A stretch of 64,000 nucleotides of DNA, taken from the NCBI GenBank assembly GCA_004194705.1, contig SADC01001204.1, positions 1,364,001-1,428,000 of the forward strand, given 5' to 3'. Below are positions 21,301 through 60,548 of the stretch, in pieces. Under the pieces are notes generated by a model, which was given only the letters and a program-made list of their open reading frames with translations, searched no databases and was not told the origin of the DNA. A program made the translations under genes and the position numbers. Numbering within the stretch: the stretch's first letter is position 1; each line of letters begins with the position of its first letter. This stretch comes from Ditylenchus dipsaci (taxonomy: Eukaryota; Nematoda; Chromadorea; Rhabditida; Anguinidae).

Positions 21301-24300
21301 GGATCAGCTAATAAGCAGTGTATATAAAACAACTTACTTCCTAACTTCCCATTTTTCCTTGGAGAAATTCTTCTCTATTGACTGAGAAATGGAGTGCTCC
21401 ATCAAATCCACATAGCGTACTACAAGTGGCGAGAATTGAGTGACTAGTTTAGTGTGGAAAATCCCGTTTTTCAAGGTGGCTGAAATTTGTTTGTGTAAAT
21501 TGGAAAAATAGATTACTGCAGCCAAAGTACTATTAACATGAATCCAAATATATATTTTTTGACACCGATGCTGAGCCATTTTGCTCAGGCATTTCAGCTG
21601 CGGGATTTCGCCCTAAAATCGGTCAAAATATGCCATTTATTCCCAATCAGCCTTTTAGAAGGTTTTTTAGGCCTTTCAGCGAAAAAATTCGACAGGTAAA
21701 ATGCTCCTGGTCATTTTAGCATAAACAAAATTACCCAGGCAAAATATACCAATTACCTCCGAATTTGCCTCGATTGAATTCTTTTTTATTTTTAGGAGTA
21801 CTACCGTATCGAAAATTGTGAAATTTACATAATTTTTCTGAGAATTTTTACAAGTTGGCTGAGTTTGAGTTCCCGTTTTGTTTCCGAAAACTGCAAAAAC
21901 AATATTTTACTTGTTATTTCCTGTGGTTTTACAAGGGTTGTAGAATTGACCAGTCAACCGGTCAGTTCCACTACAATTTGGTGCATTTAACGTCAATTGA
22001 CCAGTGTAAAAAGGTCGATTCCGCAGGGTCAGAAAATTTTCTTCAAATACTCATATTTTGTCTGGATTATTTCACAGGCTTTTTAAAATCATGATCTTCA
22101 AGACACCCGTGGGTGTAAAAACTCACGTTCAGTGCACAAGAAGTCATTGATCAATTGAAAAAGTGGAAAAGAGTCCCAAGAATCAGGTGGTTGCACTTCC
22201 AGCGCTGCATCCAAATCCACCGAGTAAAGGGACCAAAATATTTCAGAATGGTCGGACAACAGGTCACTGAACCAGGCAAATGCCTGAAATGCAACATTTT
22301 AAAAAAGTACTTAATTGTGCTATCTTTAACAAGTGAGGTGGGGGTACATGACACTTCTTTCCCGGACATTTCTTTCCCGACACTTCTTTCCCGACACTTC
22401 TTTCCCGAACAGTTCTTTCCCGGACAGTTCTTTCCCGACAGTTCTTTCCCGGACATTTCTTTCCCGGACATTTCTTTCCCGGACATTTCTTTCCCGGACA
22501 TTTCTTTCCCGGACATTTCTTTCCCGACATTTCTTTCCCATTTCCAAATTTTATTATAAGTTAAATTATTGCATGAATTTTTAATTGTACTTTTTTGCTG
22601 TGTTTTATTATCTGTAGTAAGCAACTGTATTATATTTTGTTTCTTTCAGTCATGGCTTTTGTTTATCGAAATGGTAGCTTTTTTCGGGTGCCTATAGAAG
22701 CTGCTCTGGAACCAGTTGTCAGCTGTAATCGTCAGGTACAATGGTTTAATTATTTGCTGCCTTCTTTATGTAATTTTTAAGGTGGATGATCTTCTTGAAC
22801 GTCCGCATGCTAGAAATTCGAGCAAAGGAATAGAAAATATGTGCATGATGGCAGGATGTACTGGAAGCATCGATCCTTGTCTGGAGCCAATGTTGGCGTT
22901 ATCTCTGCGCTATGTGACAAGTCTGGTGAGCATGGCTGCAAAGGACGTGCATGGTTCCGTGAAAACGAAACATTTGTGAAGTATGTATTTTGTACTTTTT
23001 ACGAATATTCTTATCTGATTAAGGATTGTTACTGCGCATAGCTGTGATGCTGATCCGTCTCACATTGTGACAACAGCGATTCGTAACGAAGAGAATAATT
23101 TAGCAGCTACAACGACAATGGTATTTTTTCAAGCAAATTTCGTTTAATTGTGTAGTTTCAGCGCACAGGTGATATCGTCGTGCAAGTCCGTGATCAAGCA
23201 AGGCTTTCGGAATTCAAGAAACATTGCCTCCAATTGCTAATCGAAAGCGTGCTATTCAGCGTGTCAGATTTAATGGTGATGAAGCAGTCAGGCCTCCTCC
23301 GGTTCCAACAAATCTGCGCACTTTTGTAATTCCTAAGTCATTCCGAGAATACACAGTGATCAATGGAAGGCGTCCGGATGAATGGCTGCTGGCAGATTCC
23401 GGCTATGATGAAGCAATATCAGGCAGAGTATTGATCTTTGGGCGCAAAAGTTACGAGAAATGGATGCATATGGTTAGAAGAGTCTTCGTCGATGGCACAT
23501 TCAAGATCGCTCCGCCTCTATTCGAACAGGTATATTTTTTATCATGTGAACATCATTTAGTAAGATTATTAAGGTTTTCGTTGTTCTTGCTGAAAGAAAT
23601 GGTTTTGTGTTTCCAATTGCTACGGCTCTGCTTCCGAATAAGCGTATGGTCACGTATAGAAAGTTCTTTGCACTACTTCAGGATGTCTTTGAAACACTTA
23701 CTCCAACAGCGTTGTCATGTGATTTTGAGCTTGGAATACAGAACGCAGCAAAGGAAATATGGCAGGATGTATCGATTGATGGCTGTTACTGGCACCTCTG
23801 CGCGAATCTTTACAAGCACTTACAGGACGAAGGACTATCTACTCGCTACGATAATGACGCTATGTTGCTCATGAGGTATGGGTATTTCTTATGAACTTCA
23901 TATACTTTCAATTTGTTTTAGTGCCGTAAGGTTGTTGCAATGGCCTGTGTGCCGATACCGAATCTGAATGTAGCTTTCCAAGCGCTTCGAGAAAATCTTC
24001 CCGATGAACTTGCTCCTATCATGCATTGGTTCGAGAACAATTATTTGGTTTAGTGGACTGATTTAAATAGAAAAGAATTTCGTTATTTTACAGGTGCAAT
24101 GAATCCTAACGGGCAGAGAAGGACTGCGCGTTTTCCAATCGACTCCTGGAATTTGGTGGAAAGAATTATGAATGATGAAGCAAGAACAAATAATTACGCA
24201 GGTATTAGTGAGTAGTATCAGTTAGCGACAGTATCTTTTAATTTATAGAAGCTTACCACAAGAAAGTAGCCAATCAACTTGGCATTGCTCATCCAACATT

Positions 24301-47102: not shown

Positions 47103-47715
47103 TTTAAAGGGGCATACCAGCGCGTCACATCGACAATTTCAAATTCGAAAAAAAGCGGGGACCATATATATTCAAATGAGAATTATTTTTAAATGCAAAT
47201 TTGGACCCTAGTATAGAATACCCCCCCCCCCCCCCCCATGAATTTTTCCTTTTAAAACTTTAGTAAAGATTACCCAAATATATGTCCTAGACCCAGAAAA
47301 AGTGCGTAAACTATTTATTAGTCACAAATTCCATACGCTGGCCTACCATTAAGCCTAAGGGCTGAGTCTAAACTTATTGTTTCAAAGGGTAAATACAGCG
47401 ATTTTGAAAAGGTCCGATTTATGGGGGGGGGCGTGGTATTATATACTAGCGCCCAAATTTGTTATTTTGTAAAGAGCAAGAAGTAATGAAAAACAGAGAT
47501 TAGTAACATGGGTAGCAGCTACCCGGTAGCTCATTTGTAAAGCAGGATATAGTCCGAACGTGGTCGGGTTCGCTTCCAAGAAGGGGCATACCTTTTTATA
47601 AAAAATGACAAATTTGTACATAAAAATAATTCTTGTTTGAATATGTATAGTCCTCCCTTCCGCCTTTTGCTTATTTGAAATTGCCACTTTAAGGCGCTAG
47701 TATGCCCCTTTAAAG
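47103..47715. mobile_element. element with AAAGGGGCATACNAGCGC ends carrying a tRNA-like sequence
   Basis: The left end AAAGGGGCATACCAGCGCG (about 47107) and right end GGCGCTAGTATGCCCCTTT (about 47693-47712) are inverted. Inside at about 47515-47590 is a tRNA-like stretch: GGTAGCTCATTTGTAAAGCA (A-box-like) and, about 30 bases on, CGGGTTCGCTTCC (B-box-like). A run of 17 C lies at 47221-47237. This could be a Pol III-transcribed SINE within or fused to a TIR element. It abuts the element that hosts the Polinton. Confidence 0.5.
47515..47590 (+). other. tRNA-like (SINE) sequence with A and B boxes
   Basis: TAGCTCATTTGTAAAGCA and GGGTTCGCTTCC are at tRNA-like spacing. The acceptor stem pairing is poor (no clean 7-bp stem), so I do not call it a functional tRNA. 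Confidence 0.4.
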
Positions 47716-47734
47716 GGCCATTGCCACCTGTTTT

Positions 47735-47920
47735 GAATTGTCCCCCGTCAATTAAAATTTTTTTAACCTAATGATTGAACTTCTGTACGGATTTTTCAGC
47801 TTGGTTTTTAACAAAACAAGGCCTAGAATTTAATTTTATGTATAGTTTTGATAGAAACCAAGTTGAAAAATCAGTACAGAAGTTCAATGATTAGGAAAAA
47901 ATTGAATTGGCGGGGTCAAC
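47735..47920. repeat. palindromic MITE beside the Polinton left end
   Basis: ATGATTGAACTTCTGTAC at about 47770 is inverted against GTACAGAAGTTCAATGAT at about 47875, with outer pairing of CCCCGTCAATT and AATTGGCGGGG. The Polinton terminal repeat begins about 20 bases further on. Confidence 0.65.
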
Positions 47921-47939
47921 CGTTGTCGGAGACGGTATA

Positions 47940-48573
47940 CAACCGATCGTTACAAAAACTGATTCGTTACACCGATTCGTTACATTGACGATTCGTTACA
48001 CCGATTCGTTACAGAAAAAATATTTTTTTGACCAAAAATCGACTTTTTGCCTTGGAGGACCAAGGTAAACCACCTTATATTATGAGCAATCAAAGGGTCA
48101 GCCCTTGGCCCGGACAATGTACCCCCGAAGGGTCAGCCCTTGGCCCGGACAATGCACCCCCGAAGGGTCAGCCCTTATCCCGGACCATGTACCCCCAAAG
48201 GGGCTTCCTATTAGTAGTATAGTATTACTATTTCTAGGACACCCATTCCACCCTTCCCCAAATTAAAAAACCCCCTTTTTTAAGGGCTTTTTCGACATAA
48301 GAAGCGGGAAATTCGTCAATTTGGTGGCAAAAAACGCTAATTATACCAATTTTAGACACCACCCATTTCAAAATTTCACAGGACAAAATTTCCCCCGTTT
48401 TTCAACGCGAAATTTATACCTTTTTAGGGCCCTTTTTAATATAAAAATCGGCAAATTTTAAAATTTGACAATAAAAAATTCAAAATTATACCAAATTTTA
48501 AGCAAATTTTTAAAAAGTCAGGACAATAATCCACCCATTTTTAAATTTAATCAAAATTTCAATTTTTAGCTAC
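47940..48573 (+). repeat. left terminal inverted repeat of the Polinton
   Basis: Begins near CAACCGAT and includes four CCGATTCGTTACA-type units (47957-48014). A CCTTGGAGGACCAAGG palindrome follows, then three tandem units of about 35 bases starting AAGGGTCAGCCCTTGGCCCG (48094-48200), then about 370 bases of AT-rich sequence ending at TTTTTAGCTAC. It pairs with 59898-60531 with few differences. Confidence 0.9.
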
Positions 48574-48920
48574 TATTCGCAAATTTTTCGCTAAAATTCG
48601 ATATTGTAAGTTTTCACGTAAAACGACTCGAATTTCGACTGTTTTTCGCCTTGTGTTCCAAAACAAAAAAAACAGTCGAAATTTGTGTACTGAAATTCGC
48701 ATGTTTTTCATCGAAAAAAAAAAGAATGATATTATATGGTCTCGACACGATTATCAGTCTTTCGACTTAAAATCGACTATGATATCAAATTTTCAATTTT
48801 TTATCTAGAGTAATAATCTTTATAGTTTTACTGGGTTTTCAATTTTTAAAGCTAAATTTTTTAAATTTTTAATTTTTATGATTATAATCTCAAGTGCTTA
48901 TTATTGTTTTTAAAATATTT

Positions 48921-50525
48921 TCATTCGCTATAATTTAGCGAATTAATCGATGGTACCTTTTTTATAAAAATTCGATCAGAATGCTTTTTATATTCGACAC
49001 AAAACTCTTTTTCTTCCACTAATTGTTTTGATTTTTTTCGAAAAGCTAGTGGTGAAGTCAAATAAACTAAAGTTCGAACAATTTGCACGGTTATAAAAAC
49101 ACAACAAATCGTGACATAAATGCGCCAATAATTAATTAAATACAGCAGAAAGTATTCGGTCAAATCGCTCGAAAAATCGTGAGGATCCGGACTTTTTTCT
49201 TCTGAAAACTCAAAATTTGCAGTCGAAAGTTGTTTGATTTCATCGAGTAGATCTTCCTCGATATACGTTTTATTCTCAGAATGATGTCGAAATATCAATT
49301 TATCATCTAAAAATTTTAAATCGTAGGTTCTTTTTATATCGAATGACTTTACGTTTTTAATCAAATTATTTTGGTCATTTTTGAACTCAATTTTATCATA
49401 AATGACATCATTTTGTTTGTCAAAATAAAAGATTTTTTTACCAAAACCTGTTATTTTGACTGGAATGAATCCATACATATCATTTTGATTAGCAAACTCG
49501 ATCAAATTCGAATCTAAATTTTTACAAAATCGAACTTCTAGCAATGTATTGTTGATCAATTGAACATCAATATATGTATAATTGAGTATTTTTTGCACAA
49601 ATTTTGTCGGACTGGTTTTTAACAAAATTTCGATCAATTCGTTTTGATTATTTAACATATTGCAAAAAGTTTGAGTTATTTGGTGCAAATTTTTTGAATA
49701 TGGTTTTCTAAGTAATTAAGTTTACTAATTTCTTCAATTTGATCAATCGATCTTTTATTTTTTGCGGTAATCAGTAACCTTCTTCGCTGACTATTATAAG
49801 ATCGTTACAGCTATTAGTAACGTTATATTTGGAATGAAAATTTAGAGCTATTTGCTCATTATGGTTTACCCAAGTTAATTCGGAATAAAAACCATCGAAA
49901 ATTCCGATCGAAATATACTCGCATTTATACTCATTATTCACATCCCAAATCATGATTTCATTAAGTTTTATTTCGCAAACTCCCCTCTGATAGTTGCAAT
50001 TTTTCATATCAGATAATACGTTTTTCGGTTGAGCAGACCCATGGTGTGCAAAACACTCGTTTCTATCAAAATGCAATTCTTTTTCAAAAATTTATCACTT
50101 TTTAGCAAGCTGGTGAATCTATTGGGATATTTGTCGGTTACTCGATTATTCGTTCTGAAAATATTGTCAAATTTTGACAATGAGCCGAAAACACACTTTT
50201 TACTTTCAATCATTTCTCGACACTCTTTTTCGCTTATTCGTTCCAAATTCAACTCTTTTTTGCTAAATTGCTCGTATCCTGATAGATCCGTATGTAAACT
50301 TATTTCGGACACTAGTTTTTTACATAAAAATCCCTTCGATTTATATTGAATATCGTTCGGTCTGAATAGCTCATATGTCCGTTTTTCGATAGTCTTATTC
50401 GAATTTATTTTACATTTATTCAATTTAGGAAACTTGAAAAATTGTTTCGGACTATTTTCGTCGCAAAACATAAGGCAAGTCGAATAATCGACCAAAAAAA
50501 GCACAAATATTATTAAGACTTTCAT
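48921..50525 (-). CDS. virus-like membrane glycoprotein, candidate envelope/fusion protein (frame-interrupted)
   Basis: Three consecutive minus-strand open segments (50525-50004, 50076-49771, 49688-48921) appear to be one gene of about 530 codons interrupted by one-base losses, at least one at an A run near 50085. The first segment starts with a clear signal peptide (VLIIFVLFLV, Cys at 17) and has well-spaced cysteines and GFLCKK followed by ISEKECREMI. That spacing recalls the N-terminal lobe of mononegavirus-type (rhabdo/chuvirus-like) glycoproteins, though this is a weak resemblance. The last segment ends with a membrane anchor (YLINYWRIYVTICCVFITVQ) and a basic cytoplasmic tail of about 50 residues. 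A type I surface protein in a Polinton would be consistent with reports that some nematode Mavericks carry viral fusogens. Alternatives: an unrelated secreted/adhesion protein. The interrupted reading frame is described, not reconstructed. Confidence 0.6.
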
Positions 50526-50562
50526 AATTTATATGTCGAATTTTTTTACCTAATAAATCGAA

Positions 50563-51423
50563 ATGTCAAGAAACGGCGAAATTGATTTTTATGAAATTTA
50601 TGATGATAAAAAACTAGAAATCATAATTAATGAAAATCTGAGACTTCGAAATGAACTAAAACGAAAATTCGACAAAAACGACCAAACTAAAAAAATAGTC
50701 GAATTTCAACAAAATGAGTTTTTCAAACCGATTTTAGTTGCAAATAAAGAAATTCAAAACGAAATAAAAAATGAAAAAGAAGAGGTAGTTAGCCTACTAA
50801 AAAATTTTCAAATAAAAAATGAAAAAACACAAGAAAAAGTGGTCGAAAACACCGAAAAAAGTAACCTTATTTCGATCTATTTTAGAGACAACAAAGATCG
50901 AAGTAATGCCGGATACTCAGTCCGTTATAATAAAGAATCGGATACATACACTATTGGTAATAGAAATATCGAAATAGTCAATAATTGCTTGAAAATCGGT
51001 GACAAAATTTATCAGCCGAATACCGGACTTTTAGAGCTATTAACAAAAAAGTCACCGAATATGTCGATTATTGATGAATCCGACAAGCAGAATTACAAAG
51101 AAATTTTGACCGATTCGAATGCCATATATAGAAATTTCGACTCAGAAACATCATTTTACAATAGCGACTCAATTGATAAGTGGAGACTCATAAAAACTTT
51201 GTTTGAAAATGAATCTCAATCTAGAAAATCTGATAATGTTGATATACAGAATCAAGATGCAAACAGTTTGACCGAAATGCTGCAAAAATCTATTCAAATT
51301 TATAAATCGGGTAATAGACAAGAATTTGTAAAAATCAACTTCATAATCAGTCGACTGACCGAATTGAATATTTTAAAAAAAGACGATATTGAGAAAATTT
51401 ACGCCTCATTAGAAAAAATGTGA
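50563..51423 (+). CDS. 286-residue coiled-coil protein of the Polinton, unnamed family
   Basis: A single intact frame starting at the first ATG, 37 bases from the divergent glycoprotein start. Residues about 20-105 are Lys/Glu/Asn-rich and predicted coiled coil. Residues about 110-195 carry a compact region (YSVRYNKESDTYTIGNRNIE, then KIYQPNTGLLELLTKKSP and QNYKEILTDSNAIYRNF). This pattern resembles proteins I have seen beside F54H12.2-like capsid genes in invertebrate genomes (GTxGLxELLxxKxP motif), but I know no assigned function. No membrane segment, signal peptide or catalytic motif. A structural or virion-associated role is a guess from context only. Confidence 0.75.
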   Translation: MSRNGEIDFYEIYDDKKLEIIINENLRLRNELKRKFDKNDQTKKIVEFQQNEFFKPILVANKEIQNEIKNEKEEVVSLLKNFQIKNEKTQEKVVENTEKSNLISIYFRDNKDRSNAGYSVRYNKESDTYTIGNRNIEIVNNCLKIGDKIYQPNTGLLELLTKKSPNMSIIDESDKQNYKEILTDSNAIYRNFDSETSFYNSDSIDKWRLIKTLFENESQSRKSDNVDIQNQDANSLTEMLQKSIQIYKSGNRQEFVKINFIISRLTELNILKKDDIEKIYASLEKM

Positions 51424-51433
51424 AAGTTAGTCG

Positions 51434-51566
51434 TATAAAACGGATACGTTTAAAACGTACAAATTATTTATATGAAACGGTACTCGTTTAAAACGTTACC
51501 GTTTAAGACGTACATAACATCCGTTTAAAACGTACTACGTAAAAAACAGTACTCGTTAAAAACGGC
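51434..51566. promoter_or_regulatory. array of CGTTTAAAACGTAC repeats between convergent genes
   Basis: Near-identical copies of the partly palindromic CGTTTAAAACGTAC at 51447-51460, 51485-51499 (one base longer), 51500-51513 and 51522-51535, with degenerate ones at 51433-51442 and 51554-51565. The array sits between the 3' ends of the coiled-coil gene (plus) and the ATPase gene (minus). Its position suggests shared transcription termination, protein-binding iterons or an origin; the sequence alone cannot decide. Confidence 0.6.
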
Positions 51567-51613
51567 TAATGTAAAATACTCTACTCATGTAAATTTAAAC
51601 TACGGAAATAATA

Positions 51614-52353
51614 TTAATCAGTTGAATACAGAAAATATTTGAGCTCTTTCCGATATTTACCTCTGTTTTTCTCGCTCGTTTTGTCGATAGTAACAAAACC
51701 ATACTTATTTACCCAACTTTTCATACAAAAATCAGAAAATTCTTCCTTTTTTAAATCAAAACAATGATCTTTGTGAAAATAGTTCAAGTTAGCCCGATCT
51801 TGTTCAAAAATTATAAAAAAGTTTGCATTCTCACGAATAGTATTTTTAGGTAATTTTACATAATTTTGTGAAATATAGAAGCAATCAACATTATTATGAC
51901 GACCCCTAGTATAGTACGACTCGATTTTAGTTTGTTTTTCATCTAAAATGTCGTCAAAAATGACTAAGTTTTTAAATTACAATCGATCTCGCTCGGATCC
52001 GGTACATCTTCAGCTGTTGAAAAACAGTGAATCTGTATCGGATTTTTACATTTTGAAGTTTTTGTAAATGTAAATTTTTTCTTTCGAATGCAATCCAAAA
52101 TTTCGTTTTTTGTCAATCCGTTTTCAAATCCGTTTTTTAGTAATTGAAAGTTTTTTTGATGCAAAGTTTTTGAAAAAATTAAAAGATTATTGTAGTCTAG
52201 GTAATTATCGAGCAGTAAATTCATCAAAAGATTAGTTTTACCGCAACCTGATTTACCTACTATTACAGCTCGAATCGAACTTGGTAATAGTTTGTTATTT
52301 TTACGTTTTTGTTCACAAAAAATATCATCGAGTGTCAAATTTAAAAATGACAT
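51614..52353 (-). CDS. A32/FtsK-HerA-type genome-packaging ATPase (one frame break)
   Basis: The first segment (52353-51964) has the Walker A motif VIVGKSGCGKTNLLMNLL at residues about 30-47. In the next frame, from about 51980 to 51614, the family continues with the Walker B motif LVIFDDIL and the conserved SYYTRGRHNNVDCFYISQNY, then KLPKNTIRENANFF. These are the signatures of the DNA-packaging ATPases of Polintons, poxviruses and adenovirus-like elements, which pump the genome into the capsid. Frame is lost by one base at an A run near 51973. The combined length (about 245 codons) is normal for the family. The start codon lies 15 bases from the divergent integrase start. Confidence 0.85.
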
Positions 52354-52368
52354 TATTTTTGTATTTAA
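52354..52368. promoter_or_regulatory. 15-base divergent spacer between ATPase and integrase starts
   Basis: The two start codons face away from each other with only TATTTTTGTATTTAA-like AT-rich sequence between. Promoter elements must therefore lie within the opposing coding regions or be shared. No motif is assigned. Confidence 0.3.
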
Positions 52369-53427
52369 ATGACTGAAGTTTTTTGTGTCAAATGTCGAAA
52401 AAAGACTGAAACGAAAAATTCAGTCGAAGTTTTGTCAAAAAACGGTCGAAAAATGTTGAAAGGCGAGTGTATAATCTGCTCGACCAAAAAATCGCAATTT
52501 GTAAAATCATCTGAAAATATACTAGAAACGACATACTACAATCCAAAAACCGGTTTTTCCGGTATAAACGATTTACAGCGAAAAACTGGAAAATCAAAAT
52601 CCGAGGTCGAAAATTTCTTGAATCAACAAAAAACATATTCTTTACATAAGCCAGCTCGTCGACATTTTGAAACTGAACGAGTTTTTGTACATGACATCGA
52701 TGAGCAATGGCAATCCGACTTGGTCGAAATGATACCTTATTCTCGCCAAAATCAGAATTTTAAGTATATTTTGACGGTAATCGATTGTTTCAGTAAATAC
52801 GGATGGGCTATACCGATAAAAAACAAAACAGGTGATGAAACAGTTCGAGTTTTTAAAAAACTGTTCGAATTTCGAAAACCGAAAAAAATTCAAACTGATA
52901 AAGGCAAAGAATATTACAATCAAAAACTCAATAAACTATTTAGAACTGATAATATTTTGCACTTTTCGACCGAATCGAGTAAAAAAGCGTCAATAGTCGA
53001 ACGTTTTAACCGAACTTTGAAAGAAAAAATGTGGAAAATTTTTACACAAAATAACAATCATAAATGGTTAGATATTATAGATGATCTTTTGATCAACTAT
53101 AATAAATCTTACCATAATTCGATCAAAATGTCACCGATCGAGGCTAGTAAAGCGGAAAATCGACAAAAAGTTCATGCCAACTTATTTCCTATGAAAAATT
53201 TGGAAAAATTACCCAAATTTGATATCGGTGACAAAGTCCGGATAACAAAATATAAAAAGATTTTTGATAAAGGATATTTACCAAATTGGACTACTGAAAT
53301 TTTCGTCATTAAAAATGTACACAAAACGGATCCACCGAGTTTTGACTTGAAAGATTTAAAAAATGAGGATATTTTAGGCAAATTTTATACCGAAGAAATA
53401 TCGCTGGTCGAAAAAAATAAGAATTGA
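52369..53427 (+). CDS. DDE integrase (rve) with N-terminal zinc ribbon fusion
   Basis: An intact 352-residue frame. Residues 6-45 form a zinc ribbon (CVKC ... GECIICSTKKSQFVK) of the kind known as DUF5679, which in related elements is often a separate small protein; here it is fused to the integrase. The retroviral-integrase core runs from about 105 to 255, with catalytic candidates D117 (QWQSDLVEM), D167 (IQTDKGKEYYN) and E201 (SIVERFNRTLKEK). The C-terminal SH3/chromo-like module follows (KVRITKYKKIFDKGYLPNW, then IFVIKNVHKTDPP). It inserts the element copy into chromosomal DNA by joining the inverted-repeat ends. No frame damage. Integrases of this sort are a hallmark of Polintons. Confidence 0.92.
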   Translation: MTEVFCVKCRKKTETKNSVEVLSKNGRKMLKGECIICSTKKSQFVKSSENILETTYYNPKTGFSGINDLQRKTGKSKSEVENFLNQQKTYSLHKPARRHFETERVFVHDIDEQWQSDLVEMIPYSRQNQNFKYILTVIDCFSKYGWAIPIKNKTGDETVRVFKKLFEFRKPKKIQTDKGKEYYNQKLNKLFRTDNILHFSTESSKKASIVERFNRTLKEKMWKIFTQNNNHKWLDIIDDLLINYNKSYHNSIKMSPIEASKAENRQKVHANLFPMKNLEKLPKFDIGDKVRITKYKKIFDKGYLPNWTTEIFVIKNVHKTDPPSFDLKDLKNEDILGKFYTEEISLVEKNKN

Positions 53428-53438
53428 AAAAATTTAAA

Positions 53439-53639
53439 ATGTCGAAAATCGCGTTTTTTAACGTTTTACGGAAGCGTTTAAAATTTGCGTTTAGTGCGTT
53501 TGCACAAAAAAAAATTGCAAAAACCCCCTGGTTTTTACCGAAATATGCCCGAATGGGAGAGAGTAACTTCTCTATCCCATTCAGGGGTGTTGGAGTCTGT
53601 TGCGCATCCCGAAGGAAAGGTTGCAGCAACCGCCTTTGA
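53439..53639 (+). CDS. possible 66-residue basic protein after the integrase
   Basis: From the ATG at 53439, a short Lys/Arg/Phe-rich frame (ten basic residues in the first 35) starting 12 bases after the integrase stop. Its second half runs through a stem-loop and GC-richer block, so the end is doubtful. No family recognised; it may be chance. Confidence 0.2.
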   Translation: MSKIAFFNVLRKRLKFAFSAFAQKKIAKTPWFLPKYARMGESNFSIPFRGVGVCCASRRKGCSNRL

Positions 53640-53754
53640 TCTGCTATAAACCTTAGAATCGGTCTATATCAGAAAGCGGAATTACAGCCACTGCGCCATC
53701 CACCCACCTATCGTTTTATAGCTAAAAGATATGCTTTAAGCTATGAAACGATCG
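53552..53754. other. structured, GC-richer block with stem-loops and tRNA-like minus-strand sequence
   Basis: Three hairpins: GAATGGGAGAGA / TCTCTATCCCATTC at 53552-53583, GGTTGCAGCAACC at about 53619-53631, and a long one, ATCGTTTTATAGCTAAAAG / CTTTAAGCTATGAAACGAT, at about 53710-53752. On the minus strand, about 53695-53640 reads GGATGGCGCAGTGGCTGTAA, resembling the 5' half of a tRNA. The composition differs from the AT-rich genes around it. It could be an untranslated RNA, a 3'-end/terminator region for the integrase gene or a tRNA-derived insertion. Confidence 0.5.
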
Positions 53755-53982
53755 GATTTACAGGGTATTCTGCTTTTTTCGATTACAGGGTGATCTGATC
53801 GACATAAAAAATTTGTCATATAAATGACTACTATTTCTTTAAACATAAAATCGAATGAAAATAGTTTTAATATCGTATTACCGGATATTTTCCAATCAAA
53901 AAATTAAAAATCGGAATAACTAAAATAGATGGGTCGATTATTTTTCAAAAAATAAAGATAAAAACAATAATTTGCAAGAATT

Positions 53983-54234
53983 ATGCAAAAAAATAATACT
54001 ATTTTTGTTAAAATAAATTTAATTAATTCGACATATATTAACAATAGTCGATTTCAGTCGATTTTTCGACTAAAAGTTACCGAAAATATCGATGAAAAAC
54101 CTAATTATATTATTTATCATAATCTAAATCAAAAACCCGACCATTTGAGTATAATGTTGGTCGATATCAATAATCGATTGATTGAAAAATCGATTATTGA
54201 TTTGTGGATTGATCTCCACTTAATAATTGCTTAA
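53983..54234 (+). CDS. small Polinton protein, 83 residues, unrecognised
   Basis: An intact frame with ordinary amino-acid composition for the element (Asn/Ile/Lys-rich), no Cys, no membrane segment. It overlaps the end of the convergent small frame at 54220-54426. Polintons usually carry short unnamed genes near the capsid gene; that is the only support. Confidence 0.45.
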   Translation: MQKNNTIFVKINLINSTYINNSRFQSIFRLKVTENIDEKPNYIIYHNLNQKPDHLSIMLVDINNRLIEKSIIDLWIDLHLIIA

Positions 54235-54426
54235 TAAAATTTTTATTTTTAGACAATTTTTAGTATTATTTTTTTTGCTTTTGGCTTTTAAAGTAGCCTC
54301 TTTTTTTTCATTTTTTGTATCATTTTTTTCGAAATTATTATTTATGAGGTCGATTTCTTTATTTTTTTCGACTTTTTTTTCGACAATATATGATTTTTTG
54401 TCATTGTCATATATGACAAGTGACAT
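54220..54426 (-). CDS. small Lys-rich Polinton protein, 68 residues
   Basis: Begins 28 bases after the stop of the capsid gene on the same strand, so the two could share a transcript. The product is very rich in Lys, Asn and Glu with no hydrophobic segment, in the manner of small DNA-condensing or scaffold proteins, but no family is recognised. Confidence 0.4.
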   Translation of the reverse strand: MSLVIYDNDKKSYIVEKKVEKNKEIDLINNNFEKNDTKNEKKEATLKAKSKKNNTKNCLKIKILLSNY

Positions 54427-54453
54427 TTAATTAGAAAATTTTTTACTTATTTT

Positions 54454-55722
54454 TCATAAAACGTTAACTCGAAAATCTTCCGAGCTAATATTCACTACAG
54501 AATTGGACAAAATCAAGCTAAAACATTTTGTATTTTCCGGTATAGGTTTCGAAAATGTCGCTCTAATTGTGATATCGGGTTTCGAACTGATAATTTTATC
54601 GTTTTGACGAGTCAAATTGAATACGAATATTGGGTAGTACTTTATGTACTGATCTTCTTCCACAAATACATTTTCAGTAAACTTTTGATTGAAATAATTT
54701 TCGCGAAATTGTTTTGCGAAGTTGTATTGCTGTACTGCATTATAATTATCCATATCGCAGCGGATACAACTATAAGGATACTGAATACTATTCAGTTCGA
54801 CAAAAATAGTTTCTAATGAACAATGGTCAAAACGAGCAGCATTATTGTAATTATTTTCTCTATTTGTTTGAAATGCGACTATAATATATGCGATTTTTTC
54901 ATATTTCATACCAAGTCGCCAAGTAAATTCTTTGGAAGCAAATGGTACATCAACATTTTCAAAATGCCGCGAAAAAAATGGTAATTTGAAAATCGGTTTC
55001 TCTTTTATAATTTTCATTAGTCGATTTTCCATTTCTAAACTTGGAATTATACTAGGTACTAACCAATTCATTTCAGTTATACGAAATTTAGCAGAAAACT
55101 TGGTCAAACTGTCAGAAACTATTGAGTTTTTACTAAAGTCGTTTCGATGTAATACAAATGAATGTTTTACGCCGTAAATTACTTTACTAAAATTTTCGCA
55201 AAATCCGAATATATGAGACAGAGGTATATAAAAACTACATTTTCCGTTTCTCAAAGTATTGTATTTCAAAATTTTTACAGCCATATTGCCTTCAGTTATC
55301 CATCCAAATGTATTTCTACGACCCAAATTCACAGAATATGTCAAAATTCCTTTCAAAAGTGTAGCTCTACCCGGGTCATTTACATTTTCAATTTGCTCAC
55401 CGTTTAAGTAATATCCTACCCGATTAAATAAAAACATCGGTGCATTATTAGTTAATGAAACTTGATCGCCTTTTTCTGATTCTGTATCAGTTTTCAGTTT
55501 ATTACCCTCTAAATCGGTTAAATTACCTTGTACATACAGATAACTTTGACTCGGTAAAATATAGTTATCACAAGTTTCAATCACGAAATTGATATCGCCA
55601 TCATCGTTTAAATGTGAGCCATAACTCGGCGAAATTTTTATAATTTTATCATATTTGATCGAGTTATTATATACCGGATCATTTTCAATAGTCAAAATTT
55701 TGTCAATTACGAAGTTCTCCAT
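54454..55722 (-). CDS. major capsid-like protein, F54H12.2-like / double-jelly-roll type
   Basis: An intact 422-residue frame. Features seen: an early strand-rich segment (GDINFVIETCDNYILPSQSY, then LYVQGNL), the segment APMFLFNRVGYYLNGEQIEN, followed by RATLLKGILTYS, the mid-protein CSFYIPLSHIFGFCE and GVKHSFVLHRND, and a second strand-rich half ending in TIRATFSKPIPENTKCFSLI. This order (IEF/LPSQSYLYVxG ... LFxxVxxxLNG ... LLxxLLxYS ... IPLSxIFGFCE) is that of the proteins annotated F54H12.2-like across invertebrate genomes, interpreted as double-jelly-roll major capsid proteins of Polinton relatives. It would form the icosahedral shell. It is divergent from the polymerase gene, with an AT-rich spacer of 124 bases between start codons. 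Function by family resemblance, not proven. Confidence 0.75.
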   Translation of the reverse strand: MENFVIDKILTIENDPVYNNSIKYDKIIKISPSYGSHLNDDGDINFVIETCDNYILPSQSYLYVQGNLTDLEGNKLKTDTESEKGDQVSLTNNAPMFLFNRVGYYLNGEQIENVNDPGRATLLKGILTYSVNLGRRNTFGWITEGNMAVKILKYNTLRNGKCSFYIPLSHIFGFCENFSKVIYGVKHSFVLHRNDFSKNSIVSDSLTKFSAKFRITEMNWLVPSIIPSLEMENRLMKIIKEKPIFKLPFFSRHFENVDVPFASKEFTWRLGMKYEKIAYIIVAFQTNRENNYNNAARFDHCSLETIFVELNSIQYPYSCIRCDMDNYNAVQQYNFAKQFRENYFNQKFTENVFVEEDQYIKYYPIFVFNLTRQNDKIISSKPDITIRATFSKPIPENTKCFSLILSNSVVNISSEDFRVNVL

Positions 55723-55846
55723 TTAAAAATCAAAATTTTTTATTGAAAATTTTTTGTTGAAAATTTTTTAAAAATTTTTTTGAAAATTTTTCGATTTTTG
55801 TTTTTCAAATTTCTATGGAAATTTTTTGGTATATAAATTATACAAA
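55723..55846. promoter_or_regulatory. divergent capsid/polymerase intergenic region with repeated GAAAATTTTTT words
   Basis: At least four near-identical GAAAATTTTT(T) words occur in 124 bases between the start codons of the capsid (minus) and polymerase (plus) genes. TATATAAAT lies just before the polymerase ATG at 55847 and is a possible TATA-like element. Inference from position and repetition. Confidence 0.45.
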
Positions 55847-58800
55847 ATGAATTGTCTTGAAAAACTTTCACGGGACAATTTAAGATCCCAAGTATTGAAA
55901 TTAAAAATTAAAAAATATGACGAGGTAAAAAAGTTGACAAAGTCTCAACTCGTCGAAATTTTACAAAATTCGAATCAAAATGTTGAATTACCCGAAACAT
56001 CGAAATTGAAAATTAAAAAATCGAACCCGAAATTGTATTGAGCGAAATTTTCCCATTTAAAAAATCTATTTTTGATCGTACAAAGAATTTAAAAAAGTAA
56101 CCCGAGAAATTGTATTTGATAATGAACACCAAATTAAAGATTTAGACAAATTTTTGAATAAAATTGAAAATCAAGTGATTTCAAATATTCGAAAAAATGT
56201 AAAAATCGGAATAACACTCGAATTTGAAATGGAAAAACCCGGATTTGACGAAATTTCGCTTTTATATGTTCGAACTAAAACTGTAGAATTTTTGCAAGAA
56301 GATGATCCGATTATATATTTTCAAAACGCTTGTTCTGAAATTCGTGATAAAATTGAAACTTTAGCCCAACAAGGTTCCGGATGGTCATTTTTACGACCAA
56401 TCAACTTACTTATGTCGCAAAATGTGTATAAACCGTACCGAGGTGGTTTGTATATCGAGTTACCCGAATGGATAAAAAATAAGCGAGCTATCATAAATAT
56501 TAAAAATAATGATGAAAAATGCTTTTTGTATTCGATTCTAGCTGCATTAAAAAAATTGAAGTACACCCAGAACGAGTAACACACTACAAAAAATTTGAAA
56601 ATGAGCTAAATTTTGAAAACATCAATTTTCCGGTTAAAATAAGCGATATTCCGAAGTTTGAGAAACTTAACAATTTAATAGTGAATGTTTTTAGTAACAA
56701 AGAAAAATCGATTATTCCGATATACATATCGAAACAAAAAGTTATATCCGAAGATCGGATCGTCGACCTGTTTTTGATAAAAGATGGTGATAATTCACAC
56801 TATACTTATATCAAAAACATAAATCGACTTTTAAATAATGAAATTAGTCAAAATAACAAAAAGTATGTATGTCGAAGATGTTTCGGATATTATACTGTGA
56901 AGTCGAAATACGACCAACATATAATCGATTGTTCAAAAATGATCCGGTTGTATATCACGAACCAAAAGACGATTATGTTTATTTCAAAAATATACAAAAA
57001 ACTCAAAAAATTCCGTACGTAATTTATGCCGATTTTGAGTCGATTATCAAAAAATTTGATTCGGCAAGTTCAGATTCTTTGAAATCTTGGACCGAAAAAG
57101 TCGGTAAACATATAGCGTCAGCATTTTGTGCAATTGTGGTCGATTTTAACGGAAAAATTGTTGATATTGAAATTTATAGGGGTTATGATGCAGGTCGACA
57201 TTTTAACGACTATATTATCAAAATTTGCGATTATTTGATCAATCTCGAAGATTTGAACATGAAAAAACTTACACCTAAACAACAGAAAATTTTTGATAAA
57301 AGTCGAAATTGTGCCGAATGTCGAGAAGAATATACGATTCAAAATCAAAAAGTTCGAGATCATGATCATTTTTCTGGTGAATTTCGACGCGCATTATGTA
57401 ATCGCTGTAATTTAAAAGCGAAAAAAAGTCGATTTATACCGGTATTTCTCCATAATCTCAAAGGTTATGATTCCGAACATATTTTGGGATCACTAAATCA
57501 AGAAATTATCGACTTTTCCGACATATCAGTTTTAGCCAGCAATTCTCAAAAATATACCAGTTTTAGCTACAAAAAACTTCGAAATTCGGATTCAAAATTA
57601 AAGTACGAAATTCGATTTTTAGACAGTTTTTCGTTTATGACATCAAGTTTAGATGCCTTAAGCAAAAATCTATCTATTGATGAATTCGAAATCACAAATC
57701 AATTTTACGGAAATGTCGAACTTTTCGAACTTTTAAAACGCAAAGGCGTTTATCCATATGAATATATGGATTCTTTCAAAAAATATGATGAAAAAAATTT
57801 GCCACCAAAAAACAGTTTTTTCGACCAACTTAATAACAAAAGTTGTACCGAGGTCGATTATTCGTATGCTAAAAAAGTTTTCGAAAAACCGGGTGTAAAA
57901 ATTTAGGCGATTATACCGACATATATTTGATAAACGACGTACTTATGTTAGCCGATGTATTCGAAACTTTTAGAAAAACTTGCTTAAAAAACTATAAACT
58001 CGACCCCTGTTGGTATTATACGTCACCCGGATTAGCGTGGGACGCAATGTTAAAAATTACCGAAATTAGGTTAGAAACGATTAAAAACTATGATATGTAC
58101 CTATTTATCGAAAAAGGTATTCGAGGCGGTATGGTTAACTCGATAAAACGATATTCGACCGCAAATAATAAATATATGAAAAATTTCGACCCTAAAATAG
58201 AAAGTCAATATTTAGTATATCTCGATGCGAATAATTTATATGGTTGGGCAATGATCCAAAATTTACCATATGACGAACTAAAATTTGAAGAAAATTTCGA
58301 CCAAAATATGACATTCGACCAAGTAAAAATTATGTCGACAATTTGAATAAAAACGGAAAAGGTTGTATTTTCGAGGTTGATTTAGAATATAGTGCCGAAA
58401 TTCACGATTTACACAACGATTTTCCGTTTTGCCCCCAAAATACAAAGGTCGACAATCAAAAAACTTCGAAATTAATGAACACATTTTTCGACAAAGAAAA
58501 ATATGTTATACATTATAAAAACTTAATTCAAGCTTTAGAAAAAGGTCTAAAGTTGAAAAAAGTTCACCGAATTTTGAGTTTCCGGGAGTCGAACTGGATG
58601 TCGAAATACATATCTTTAAACACAAATTTGCGAAAAAATGCAAAAAACGATTTTGAAAAAGATTTTTTTAAATTAATGAACAATAGCGTTTTTGGTAAAA
58701 CTATGGAAAATATTCGAAATCGAGTCGACATCGAACTGGTAACTAGCGAAAATCGCGCGTTAAAATTAGTTAAAAAAGTACATTTTAAACATAGCGTCAT

Positions 58801-59466
58801 AATAAACGAAAATTTGACGAGTATTGAGATGAATAAAACTAATTTAGAATTCGACAAACCGATATATGTCGGATTTAGTATACTCGATTTGAGTAAATTT
58901 TTGATGTATGAGTTTCATTATGACGCTATGTTACCGAAATACGAAAAAAATATTACTTTATGTTATCAGGATACCGATAGTTTGATTTATGAAATAAAAA
59001 CGGATGATTTTTATCAGGATATAGTCGAAATCAAAGATTGGTTCGACTTTAGCGATTATCCTAAAAATCATCCGTTATACGACATTTCGAACAAAAAAGT
59101 AATCGGCAAATTTAAAGACGAACTTAACGGTAAAATAATGACCGAAATAGTCGCGTTAAAACCAAAACAATACGCATTTCGGGTCGAAAACGGCGAAGAA
59201 ACAAAAAAATCTAAAGGTGTGAAAAAAAGCGTGGTAAAAACGCTAACCGTTGACGATTATAAACGGTGTATTTTAGAAAATAAAACATTCCGAAAAGAAC
59301 AATTTTTAATCCGAAAGTCGACCGATGAAATCGACACCGTTATTTATATACAATTCGGCAAAATAAAGTCGCTTTGAGCGACGAAAATAAAACAGAATTT
59401 AAAAGATTTATTTTAAAAAATAATATAAGCACTTTAGCTTATAATCATAACAGTATAAAAAATTAA
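55847..59466 (+). CDS. Polinton DNA polymerase B polyprotein (SAP, zinc finger, endonuclease VII, PolB), frame-interrupted
   Basis: Open segments in the order 55847-56041, about 56100-56579, 56519-57022, 56869-57906, 57927-58346, 58343-59377 and a tail to 59466 read as one protein of about 1200 residues. Domains: N-terminal SAP-like helix pair (LEKLSRDNLRSQVLKLKIKK); a conserved block (YRGGLYIELPEWIKNKRAII); a CxxC-H-C zinc finger (CRRCFGYYTVKSKYDQH); exonuclease start (YADFES); endonuclease VII-type zinc module (CAECREEY, RDHDHFSGEFRRALCNRCN); PolB motif A (LDANNLYGWAM), motif B (KLMNNSVFGKTMENI) and motif C (YQDTDSLIYE). It replicates the element, probably by protein priming at the inverted ends. 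About six frame breaks occur, each one base short, mostly at A runs; motif residues are all conserved, which argues against decay. The interruptions are described, not repaired. Confidence 0.88.
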
Positions 59467-59694
59467 AAATTTAAAAGATTTACAAATAGTACGATTAGAT
59501 CATTTTTTACGGTTATATAAAAAGTTTTAGCTTAAAAAGGCGAAAAACCTAGTAAAACTATAAAATTTATTATTTTAAATAAAAAGGCCGACAGTTTGAT
59601 ACCGAACTCGATTTTTATGTCGTGTACTGAATTTCTTGTCGAGACCAATATTTGTGAAAATAAAGTCGAAAATTTTGAAATATTGCAAGCTTAA
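59467..59694 (+). CDS. possible small protein after the polymerase
   Basis: In the frame ending at the TAA at 59692-59694, about 50 codons are open (GEKPSKTIKFIILNKK ... ICENKVENFEILQA). A preceding segment in another frame (DLQIVRLDHFLRLYKKF) resembles a SAP-like helix, so one small SAP-type gene with a base missing is possible. Weak evidence. Confidence 0.25.
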
Positions 59695-59897
59695 TGTCGA
59701 TAAATTTAATAAAAAAAACTTACAGTATAGTACTGAACCTATATGTAAAATTTAATTAGTATGGTATAATGAAATTTTTTTAAAAATATTCACTTGTGGC
59801 TACCATGCCTAAAATATATAATGTTAATTTGTAGATCGAATGTCGAGTTATTATGCAAAAAACTCACACTTATAACTAGCTTTATTTTTCTAAAAAA

Positions 59898-60531
59898 GTA
59901 GCTGAAAATTGAAATTTTGATTAAATTTAAAATGGGTGGATTATTGTCCTGACTTTTTCGAAATTTTTGTCTAAATTTGGTATAATTTTGAATTTTTTAT
60001 TGTCAAATTTTAAAATTTGCCGATTTTTATATTAAAAAGGGCCCTAAAAAGGTATAAATTTCGCGTTGAAAAACGGGGGAAATTTTTGTCCTGTGAAATT
60101 TTGAAATGGGTGGTGTCTAAAATTGGTATAATTAGCGTTTTTTGCCACCAAATTGACGAATTTCCCGCTTCTTATGTCGAAAAAGCCCTTAAAAAAGGGG
60201 TTTTTAATTTGGGGAAGGGTGGAATGGGTGTCCTAGAAATAGTAATACTATACTACTAATAGGAAGCCCCTTTGGGGTACATGGTCCGGGATAAGGGCTG
60301 ACCCTTCGGGGGTGCATTGTCCGGGCCAAGGGCTGACCCTTCGGGGGTACATTGTCCGGGCCAAGGGCTGACCCTTTGATTGCTCATAATATAAGGTGGT
60401 TTACCTTGGTCCTCCAAGGCAAAAAGTCGATTTTTTGGTCAAAAAAATATTTTTTCTGTAACGAATCGGTGTAACGAATCGTCAATGTAACGAATCGGTG
60501 TAACGAATCAGTTTTTGAAATGAATCGGTTG
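59898..60531 (-). repeat. right terminal inverted repeat of the Polinton
   Basis: Reverse complement of 47940-48573. It carries the same three units with GGGCTGACCCTTCGGGGG and the four TGTAACGAATCGG units at the outer end. Differences from the left copy are few and concentrated at the very tip (ATGAATCGGTTGG against CAACCGATCGTTAC). Confidence 0.9.
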
Positions 60532-60548
60532 GCAGTCGTCGGAGACGG

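What the first reader, a model, noticed from the sequence alone, without database searches (positions are those of the whole stretch)
47940..60531. Polinton-type element that may encode a complete, possibly enveloped, virus
Replication (PolB with SAP, zinc finger and endonuclease VII modules), integration, packaging ATPase and a capsid protein are all visible, with about 630 bp inverted ends. It also has a signal-peptide and membrane-anchored glycoprotein-like gene. All catalytic motifs I can see are conserved. I know from the literature that some nematode Mavericks carry viral fusogens; a different glycoprotein type here would be a new variant.
Basis: partly seen in the sequence, partly recalled or inferred. 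Interest (0 to 1): 0.88.

Follow-up and report, generated by a model that had tools for sequence, protein, structure and literature searches.

The report
Nematode Maverick carrying a viral fusogen
A virus-like mobile element in a worm's genome carries replication, integration, packaging and capsid genes plus a cell-fusion protein of a kind already known from such elements in other worms, so it is a good new example rather than a new kind of virus.

Summary
The element is real: a Maverick/Polinton in a genome whose statistics resemble Ditylenchus dipsaci. Integrase and double-jelly-roll capsid have whole frames; ATPase, polymerase region and glycoprotein lie in pieces in different frames. The 638-bp inverted ends are composite: the Maverick proper is 48213-60257 with ~365-bp ends, and the outer ~273 bp on each side are arms of another repeat with its own 9-bp target duplication. 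The glycoprotein is not a different type: its three main pieces align in order with a Caenorhabditis briggsae protein, in a family I take to be the published nematode Maverick fusogen. It is a short form lacking ~290 central residues; a relative's model resembles class III fusogens, both herpesvirus gB and rhabdovirus/nyavirus-like G. New details: an apparently mosaic fusogen (96-99% against 74-89% identity to two close copies), 22 places in this genome with fusogen near capsid, and a distant homologue fused to a gag-type zinc knuckle. Frame breaks may partly be assembly errors; not proven.

The parts
47925..47933 (.). 9-bp target duplication (left) of the outer repeat
   Evidence: read; the same 9 bp follow the right end; L013, L015 and L020, other copies of the outer repeat, have their own 9-bp duplications; joined-flank empty site at 1300 places with up to 3 mismatches
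47934..48212 (+). left arm of a MULE-like (9-bp duplication) non-autonomous repeat, not Maverick
   Evidence: main matches to 17 other places at 93-98%; one such repeat is ~474 bp; absent from the ends of the nine other Maverick copies read
48213..48577 (+). Maverick terminal inverted repeat, left (starts AGTAGTATAG)
48921..49688 (-). fusogen, C-terminal piece with membrane-anchor-like segment (255 aa)
   Evidence: 33% identity to CBG24837 residues 547-790; 55 matches in own genome
49679..49804 (-). fusogen, short piece in another frame holding a K-x-K-R basic site
   Evidence: an R-x-K-R site stands at the matching junction in 13 of 18 rows of A2
49771..50076 (-). fusogen, middle piece (101 aa)
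   Evidence: 49% identity to CBG24837 residues 162-256
50004..50525 (-). fusogen, N-terminal piece with signal-peptide-like start (173 aa; the alignment to a relative ends at residue 158)
   Evidence: 49% identity to CBG24837 residues 1-164; weak PF00974 match E 0.019, under cut-off
50563..51423 (+). 286-aa protein, function not identified, kept in the close copies
   Evidence: no family; 97-98% DNA identity to close copies
51617..51976 (-). packaging ATPase, C-terminal piece
   Evidence: PF04665 6.7e-5, 22.9 bits, just over cut-off
51964..52353 (-). packaging ATPase, N-terminal piece
   Evidence: PF04665 4.4e-5, 23.5 bits, just over cut-off
52369..53427 (+). rve integrase with DUF5679 N-terminus, whole frame
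   Evidence: PF00665 2.6e-14, PF18930 6.5e-14
53424..53639 (+). small basic ORF, unassigned
   Evidence: no Pfam match
53824..54234 (+). two small ORFs in different frames, candidate minor capsid (inference)
   Evidence: related small ORFs stand in the same place in the C21 copy; the 83-aa ORF has no Pfam match
54454..55722 (-). double-jelly-roll major capsid protein, whole frame (422 aa)
   Evidence: PF21738 1.6e-36; 101 relatives
55847..56038 (+). SAP-like N-terminal piece of the polymerase region (by eye only)
   Evidence: no SAP family at E <= 1
56154..59377 (+). B-family polymerase region in pieces: endonuclease VII-like, Exo I (57025), Exo II (57451), Exo III (57936), motifs A (58218), B (58670), C (58964), in three frames
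   Evidence: motif names recalled; no Pfam polymerase match for any piece
59894..60257 (-). Maverick terminal inverted repeat, right (ends CTATACTACT)
60258..60537 (-). right arm of the outer repeat: left-type sequence in inverse orientation with a right-type tip
60538..60546 (.). 9-bp target duplication (right)
   Evidence: read

Best explanation
A Maverick/Polinton of a multicopy nematode family, inserted into an older MULE-like repeat (~474 bp in one other copy) that sits in a high-copy host repeat. By established Maverick biology (recalled) it would replicate through its own protein-primed B-family polymerase, integrate with its rve integrase (5-bp duplications in two other copies) and package DNA into a double-jelly-roll capsid with the A32 ATPase. 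The fifth module is a ~520-residue, probably cleaved, membrane-anchored class III-type fusogen of a family also present in Caenorhabditis; I infer that it lets particles or packaged DNA enter cells of the same or another nematode. Shown: gene content, homology, copy number, a step in identity inside the fusogen gene, third-position bias in capsid and integrase. Inferred: particle formation, envelope, cleavage, recombination, function in entry. The frame breaks of this copy are at least partly explicable as assembly errors, but real decay is not excluded.
For: Integrase, ATPase, endoVII families; capsid family, 101 relatives and model; fusogen family including six Caenorhabditis proteins (16 hits) and collinear piece-by-piece alignments; one C. 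briggsae relative, P0116, begins with sequence resembling this element's integrase (by eye; one of 18 members each matches DUF5679 and rve at E 0.024 and 0.14); class III fold matches; 22 of 27 Maverick-type fusogen places lie within 6 kb of a capsid match (my reading); ends and 5-bp duplications in two other copies; mismatches at third codon positions against three close copies: capsid 36/55, 36/55, 35/47, integrase 25/39, 26/43, 15/29.
Confidence: 0.86

Rival explanations
1. The window copy is a decayed relic: its frame changes are true mutations and it makes no product beyond capsid and integrase.
For: At least three genes broken; many other copies also have stops or frame changes; missing Maverick target duplication.
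Against: Whole capsid and integrase frames; third-position bias against close copies. The terminal arms differ by about as many gaps as substitutions (8 and 7 over 632 aligned bases), and one integrase copy at a contig end (L009) differs by 5 substitutions but 17 gaps over 810 bases, a ratio I would expect of uncorrected long-read consensus. The D. dipsaci paper describes PacBio contigs with no polishing step mentioned and 133 fragmented and 312 missing of 982 BUSCO genes (PMC6929663, whole text). But only 4 of 8 terminal-arm gaps and 6 of 17 L009 gaps are single bases next to runs of 3 or more, so the error reading is not clean; and the window's own breaks were not tested.
Confidence: 0.35
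2. The 638-bp inverted ends are one genuine Maverick terminal repeat.
For: Both arms are about 97% alike over the whole 638 bp.
Against: The nine other copies whose ends I read begin at or within a few bases of the equivalent of 48213, two with 5-bp duplications there. The outer 273 bp recur without the inner part at 17 other places; three of these show their own 9-bp duplications, and a 9-bp duplication flanks the outer arms here.
Confidence: 0.08
3. The glycoprotein is a different type from the known nematode Maverick fusogen.
For: Short form without the ~290-residue central part of the Caenorhabditis proteins; the branch of the window type is long in the tree (1.16). The 2023 paper itself was not available, so identity with its fusogen is inferred.
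Against: Collinear 33-49% identity with CBG24837; members of the family alignment are 43-66% identical to the short form P0104.
Confidence: 0.03

Closest known systems
Nematode Mavericks with a fusogen (Widen et al. 2023; paper itself not held; mentions of it seen as passages in PMC10680173, PMC12451028, PMC11071296 and PMC11623301)
   Same: Maverick core genes plus a fusogen; homologous capsid (C. briggsae and C. angaria relatives of 46% and 45% identity over 99% of the query) and homologous glycoprotein.
   Different: Short glycoprotein (~520 aa against ~800), an apparently mosaic gene, another host lineage, composite outer ends.
Class III fusogens: herpesvirus gB, rhabdovirus G, nyavirus and chuvirus glycoproteins
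   Same: All 50 listed PDB rows are herpesvirus glycoproteins, gB where the row names it; rhabdo-like, nyavirus and chu-like glycoproteins lead BFVD.
   Different: No meaningful sequence match to solved structures; Pfam matches to Rhabdo_glycop_FD and gB stay under cut-off.
Mavirus and other double-jelly-roll capsid viruses
   Different: 6-14% sequence identity in the listed matches to solved capsids.
MULE-type non-autonomous repeats
   Same: Long terminal inverted repeats and 9-bp duplications in three other copies.
   Different: Assignment to MULEs rests on duplication length (recalled); no transposase was linked.

Membership tests
Maverick/Polinton | terminal inverted repeats shared by copies | tested here: met
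Maverick/Polinton | 5-6-bp target duplication | tested here: inconclusive
   5 bp in two other copies; none at the window copy, where the flanks are inverted repeats of each other
Maverick/Polinton | protein-primed B-family polymerase | tested here: inconclusive
   six motifs in order in three frames (motif names recalled); no Pfam polymerase match
Maverick/Polinton | retroviral-type integrase | tested here: met
   PF00665 2.6e-14
Maverick/Polinton | FtsK/A32-type packaging ATPase | tested here: met
   both pieces just over the PF04665 cut-off
Maverick/Polinton | double-jelly-roll major capsid protein | tested here: met
Maverick/Polinton | minor capsid (penton) protein | tested here: inconclusive
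   candidate ORFs 53824-54234 only
Maverick/Polinton | maturation protease | tested here: inconclusive
   no protease among the Pfam matches of the 18 pieces scanned; other frames were not scanned
Nematode Maverick fusogen family | sequence homology to Caenorhabditis glycoproteins of this family | tested here: met
   that these are the published fusogen is inferred
Nematode Maverick fusogen family | gene lies within a Maverick | tested here: met
   window map; 22 of 27 places near a capsid match
Nematode Maverick fusogen family | long central insert of Caenorhabditis members (not taken as defining) | tested here: not met
Class III fusogens | three-dimensional fold | tested here: met
Class III fusogens | two hydrophobic fusion loops, low-pH or receptor trigger | not tested
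   -
Enveloped virus | membrane-bearing particles | not testable with these tools
   -

The most novel reading that the evidence does not exclude
In this nematode one class III fusogen family circulates between unrelated kinds of mobile element, DNA Mavericks and gag-bearing retroelement-like units, and is reshuffled by recombination inside the gene between Maverick lineages. Its ultimate source may be a negative-strand RNA virus (Monjiviricetes) rather than a herpesvirus.
Probability: 0.3. Interest if true: 0.68.

Novelty: new member of a known kind. Interest (0 to 1): 0.45.

Why it matters
If the host inference is right, it extends fusogen-bearing Mavericks to a plant-parasitic nematode, with 22 fusogen-capsid places in one genome, and offers natural material (short and long forms, an apparently mosaic gene, a gag-linked homologue) to test where the worm Maverick fusogen came from and whether its exchange drives spread between species. 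It also warns that terminal repeats read from one copy can include an unrelated nested repeat.

Tried and rejected
Three scans of IMG/VR with integrase, capsid and capsid profile gave no relative. The scan of prokaryote genomes gave one contig labelled Balneolales MAG with a 31% capsid and a SAP-polymerase-like start, read as contamination. PDB sequence searches with two fusogen pieces, a whole fusogen frame, the fusogen profile, the capsid profile and a polymerase piece gave nothing meaningful. PHROGs and NCBIfam added nothing beyond transposase-type integrase matches and weak matches, mostly to P-loop families.

Herpesvirus or RNA-virus origin of the fusogen stays undecided. PDB rows are herpesvirus glycoproteins, but BFVD is led by rhabdo-like, nyavirus and chu-like glycoproteins, with gB first at rank 7. 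The gB Pfam profile gives 4 sub-cut-off matches in the whole genome (E 0.016-0.48), 3 of them at Maverick fusogen places and the fourth at C89. The rhabdovirus fusion-domain profile matches 6 of 18 family members at E <= 1 (best 0.023), but in the genome it finds C118 and C420 instead. The Monjiviricetes profile passes its cut-off at C89, C866, C420 and C118, none of which is in the capsid lists, so a Maverick with a second fusogen type is not shown. The tree could not place the retroelement-like homologues, which sit on very long branches.

Dating the insertion in years was dropped: no rate, and gaps are as many as substitutions. Ten paper searches were made; the one for 'polinton' with 'ditylenchus' found 0 papers ('Maverick' with 'Ditylenchus' was not searched), and Widen 2023 itself was not found. 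PMC13269885 was looked at in passages only and was not relevant.

Full report
What is there. The window is G000:C1177:1364001-1428000 of a 226,978,389-base, 1,359-contig genome. The Ditylenchus dipsaci assembly paper gives 227,234,012 bp, 1,394 scaffolds and 37.5% GC (PMC6929663, whole text): close, not identical. The capsid's best named relatives are from Caenorhabditis briggsae and C. angaria. I therefore infer D. dipsaci as host; no marker gene was tested.

Ends. The two arms 47940-48577 and 59894-60531 align with 626 of 644 columns identical. Searching the left arm in the genome gave 66 matches, with 40 of 2007 candidates scored, so counts are lower bounds. Besides the window's own arms they are mainly of two sorts. 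Matches to arm positions ~273-638, at 85-91% identity, lie partly on contigs with other Maverick gene matches (C111, C369, C64, C1292, C580, C1260, C274, C860); the rest were not checked. In the seven I inspected the AGTAGTATAG start stands at or within a few bases of the match's outer end, next to unrelated flanks. Two further copies whose ends I fetched have 5-bp duplications directly outside AGTAGTATAG...CTATACTACT: CGGAC at C274 and ACACT at C1260. Matches to positions 1-273, at 93-98%, stand at 17 other places and belong to another repeat, ~474 bp in L013, with inverted termini. L013, L015 and L020 show 9-bp duplications; in L015 the two ends lie about 1.4 kb apart. In the window the same kind of 9-bp duplication, GTCGGAGAC, flanks the outer arms. 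The joined flanks occur as an empty site at 1300 places (635 forward, 665 reverse) with up to 3 mismatches, 2 of them exact, against 0 for the reversed control. So the Maverick proper is 48213-60257, nested in a MULE-like repeat (label recalled) that is itself in a high-copy repeat. The window Maverick has no duplication of its own, and both outer arms are left-type. My inference is that the right arm was converted by the left after insertion; a chimeric assembly is not excluded.

Copies and selection. PF21738: 34 matches at 23 places by my grouping. Of 33 places with a match to the N-terminal fusogen piece I left out six (C1195, C1248, C210, C710, C921, C1328: retroelement-like or unclear). 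Of the 27 left, 22 have a capsid match within 6 kb; C536, C598 twice, C783 and C937 do not. In 4 of the 22 (window, C21 twice, C295) fusogen and capsid lie about 4 kb apart with the integrase between them; in the other 18 they lie within about 1.3 kb. Against three close copies, mismatches fall mainly at third codon positions in capsid (36/55, 36/55, 35/47) and integrase (25/39, 26/43, 15/29), but not in the 286-aa gene (p 0.21-0.65) nor in integrase copy L009 (2 of 5), and the N-terminal fusogen piece has only 4-8 differences from close copies (29 comparisons run, several of them of the same copy). Along the fusogen gene, identity (gaps left out) to both C21 copies is 0.74-0.85 up to 49,878, 0.89 in the next 100 bases and 0.96-0.99 from there to the gene's start. 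I read this as recombination between lineages inside the gene; uneven rates are not excluded.

Frame breaks. The arms differ by 7 substitutions and 8 gaps; one integrase copy at a contig end (L009, C536) differs by 5 substitutions and 17 gaps over 810 bases. Such ratios fit long-read consensus error, and the assembly paper mentions no polishing. But only part of these gaps are single bases beside runs of 3 or more (4 of 8; 6 of 17), and the window's own breaks were not tested with reads. Neither intactness nor decay of this copy is shown.

Side finding. Distant fusogen homologues lie in open frames at C1195, C210, C1248, C921 and C710. At C1195 the frame begins with a gag-type zinc knuckle (PF00098 3.3e-5, over cut-off), and the profile comparison with the Maverick family gives probability 99.1, E 7.7e-19 over 205 columns. 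This supports sharing of the ectodomain between element kinds, direction unknown.

Verdict. A real Maverick with a fusogen of a family already seen in nematodes; short form, apparently mosaic gene, composite ends, probably a new host. Interesting, not categorically new.

Noticed in passing
L082 (G000:C1195:162500-166500), also L083-L086: Open frames with a distant homologue of the Maverick fusogen; at C1195 it follows a gag-type zinc knuckle in one frame, with a gag-like ORF upstream and no pol in between in the 4 kb seen.
   Followed up: partly
G000 C89:35832-36203, C866:98080-98415, C420:45186-45437, C118:51546-51788: Monjiviricetes_fusion (PF24664) matches over cut-off; C89 and C866 also have integrase matches about 11 kb and 3 kb away but no DJR capsid match.
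   Followed up: partly
47710-47935: Left flank is part of a repeat with about 1300 empty-site copies in the genome.
   Followed up: partly
23224-23874: ORF resembling a MULE-type transposase by eye; possible source of mobility for the 9-bp-duplication repeat.
   Followed up: no
L001 (JAKSCW010000326.1, labelled Balneolales MAG): Contig carries a Polinton-type capsid and a SAP-polymerase-like start; probably contamination of a bacterial MAG.
   Followed up: no
53824-54234: Two small reading frames in different frames recur, as related ORFs, in the C21 copy: shared error, two genes, or a programmed frameshift.
   Followed up: no
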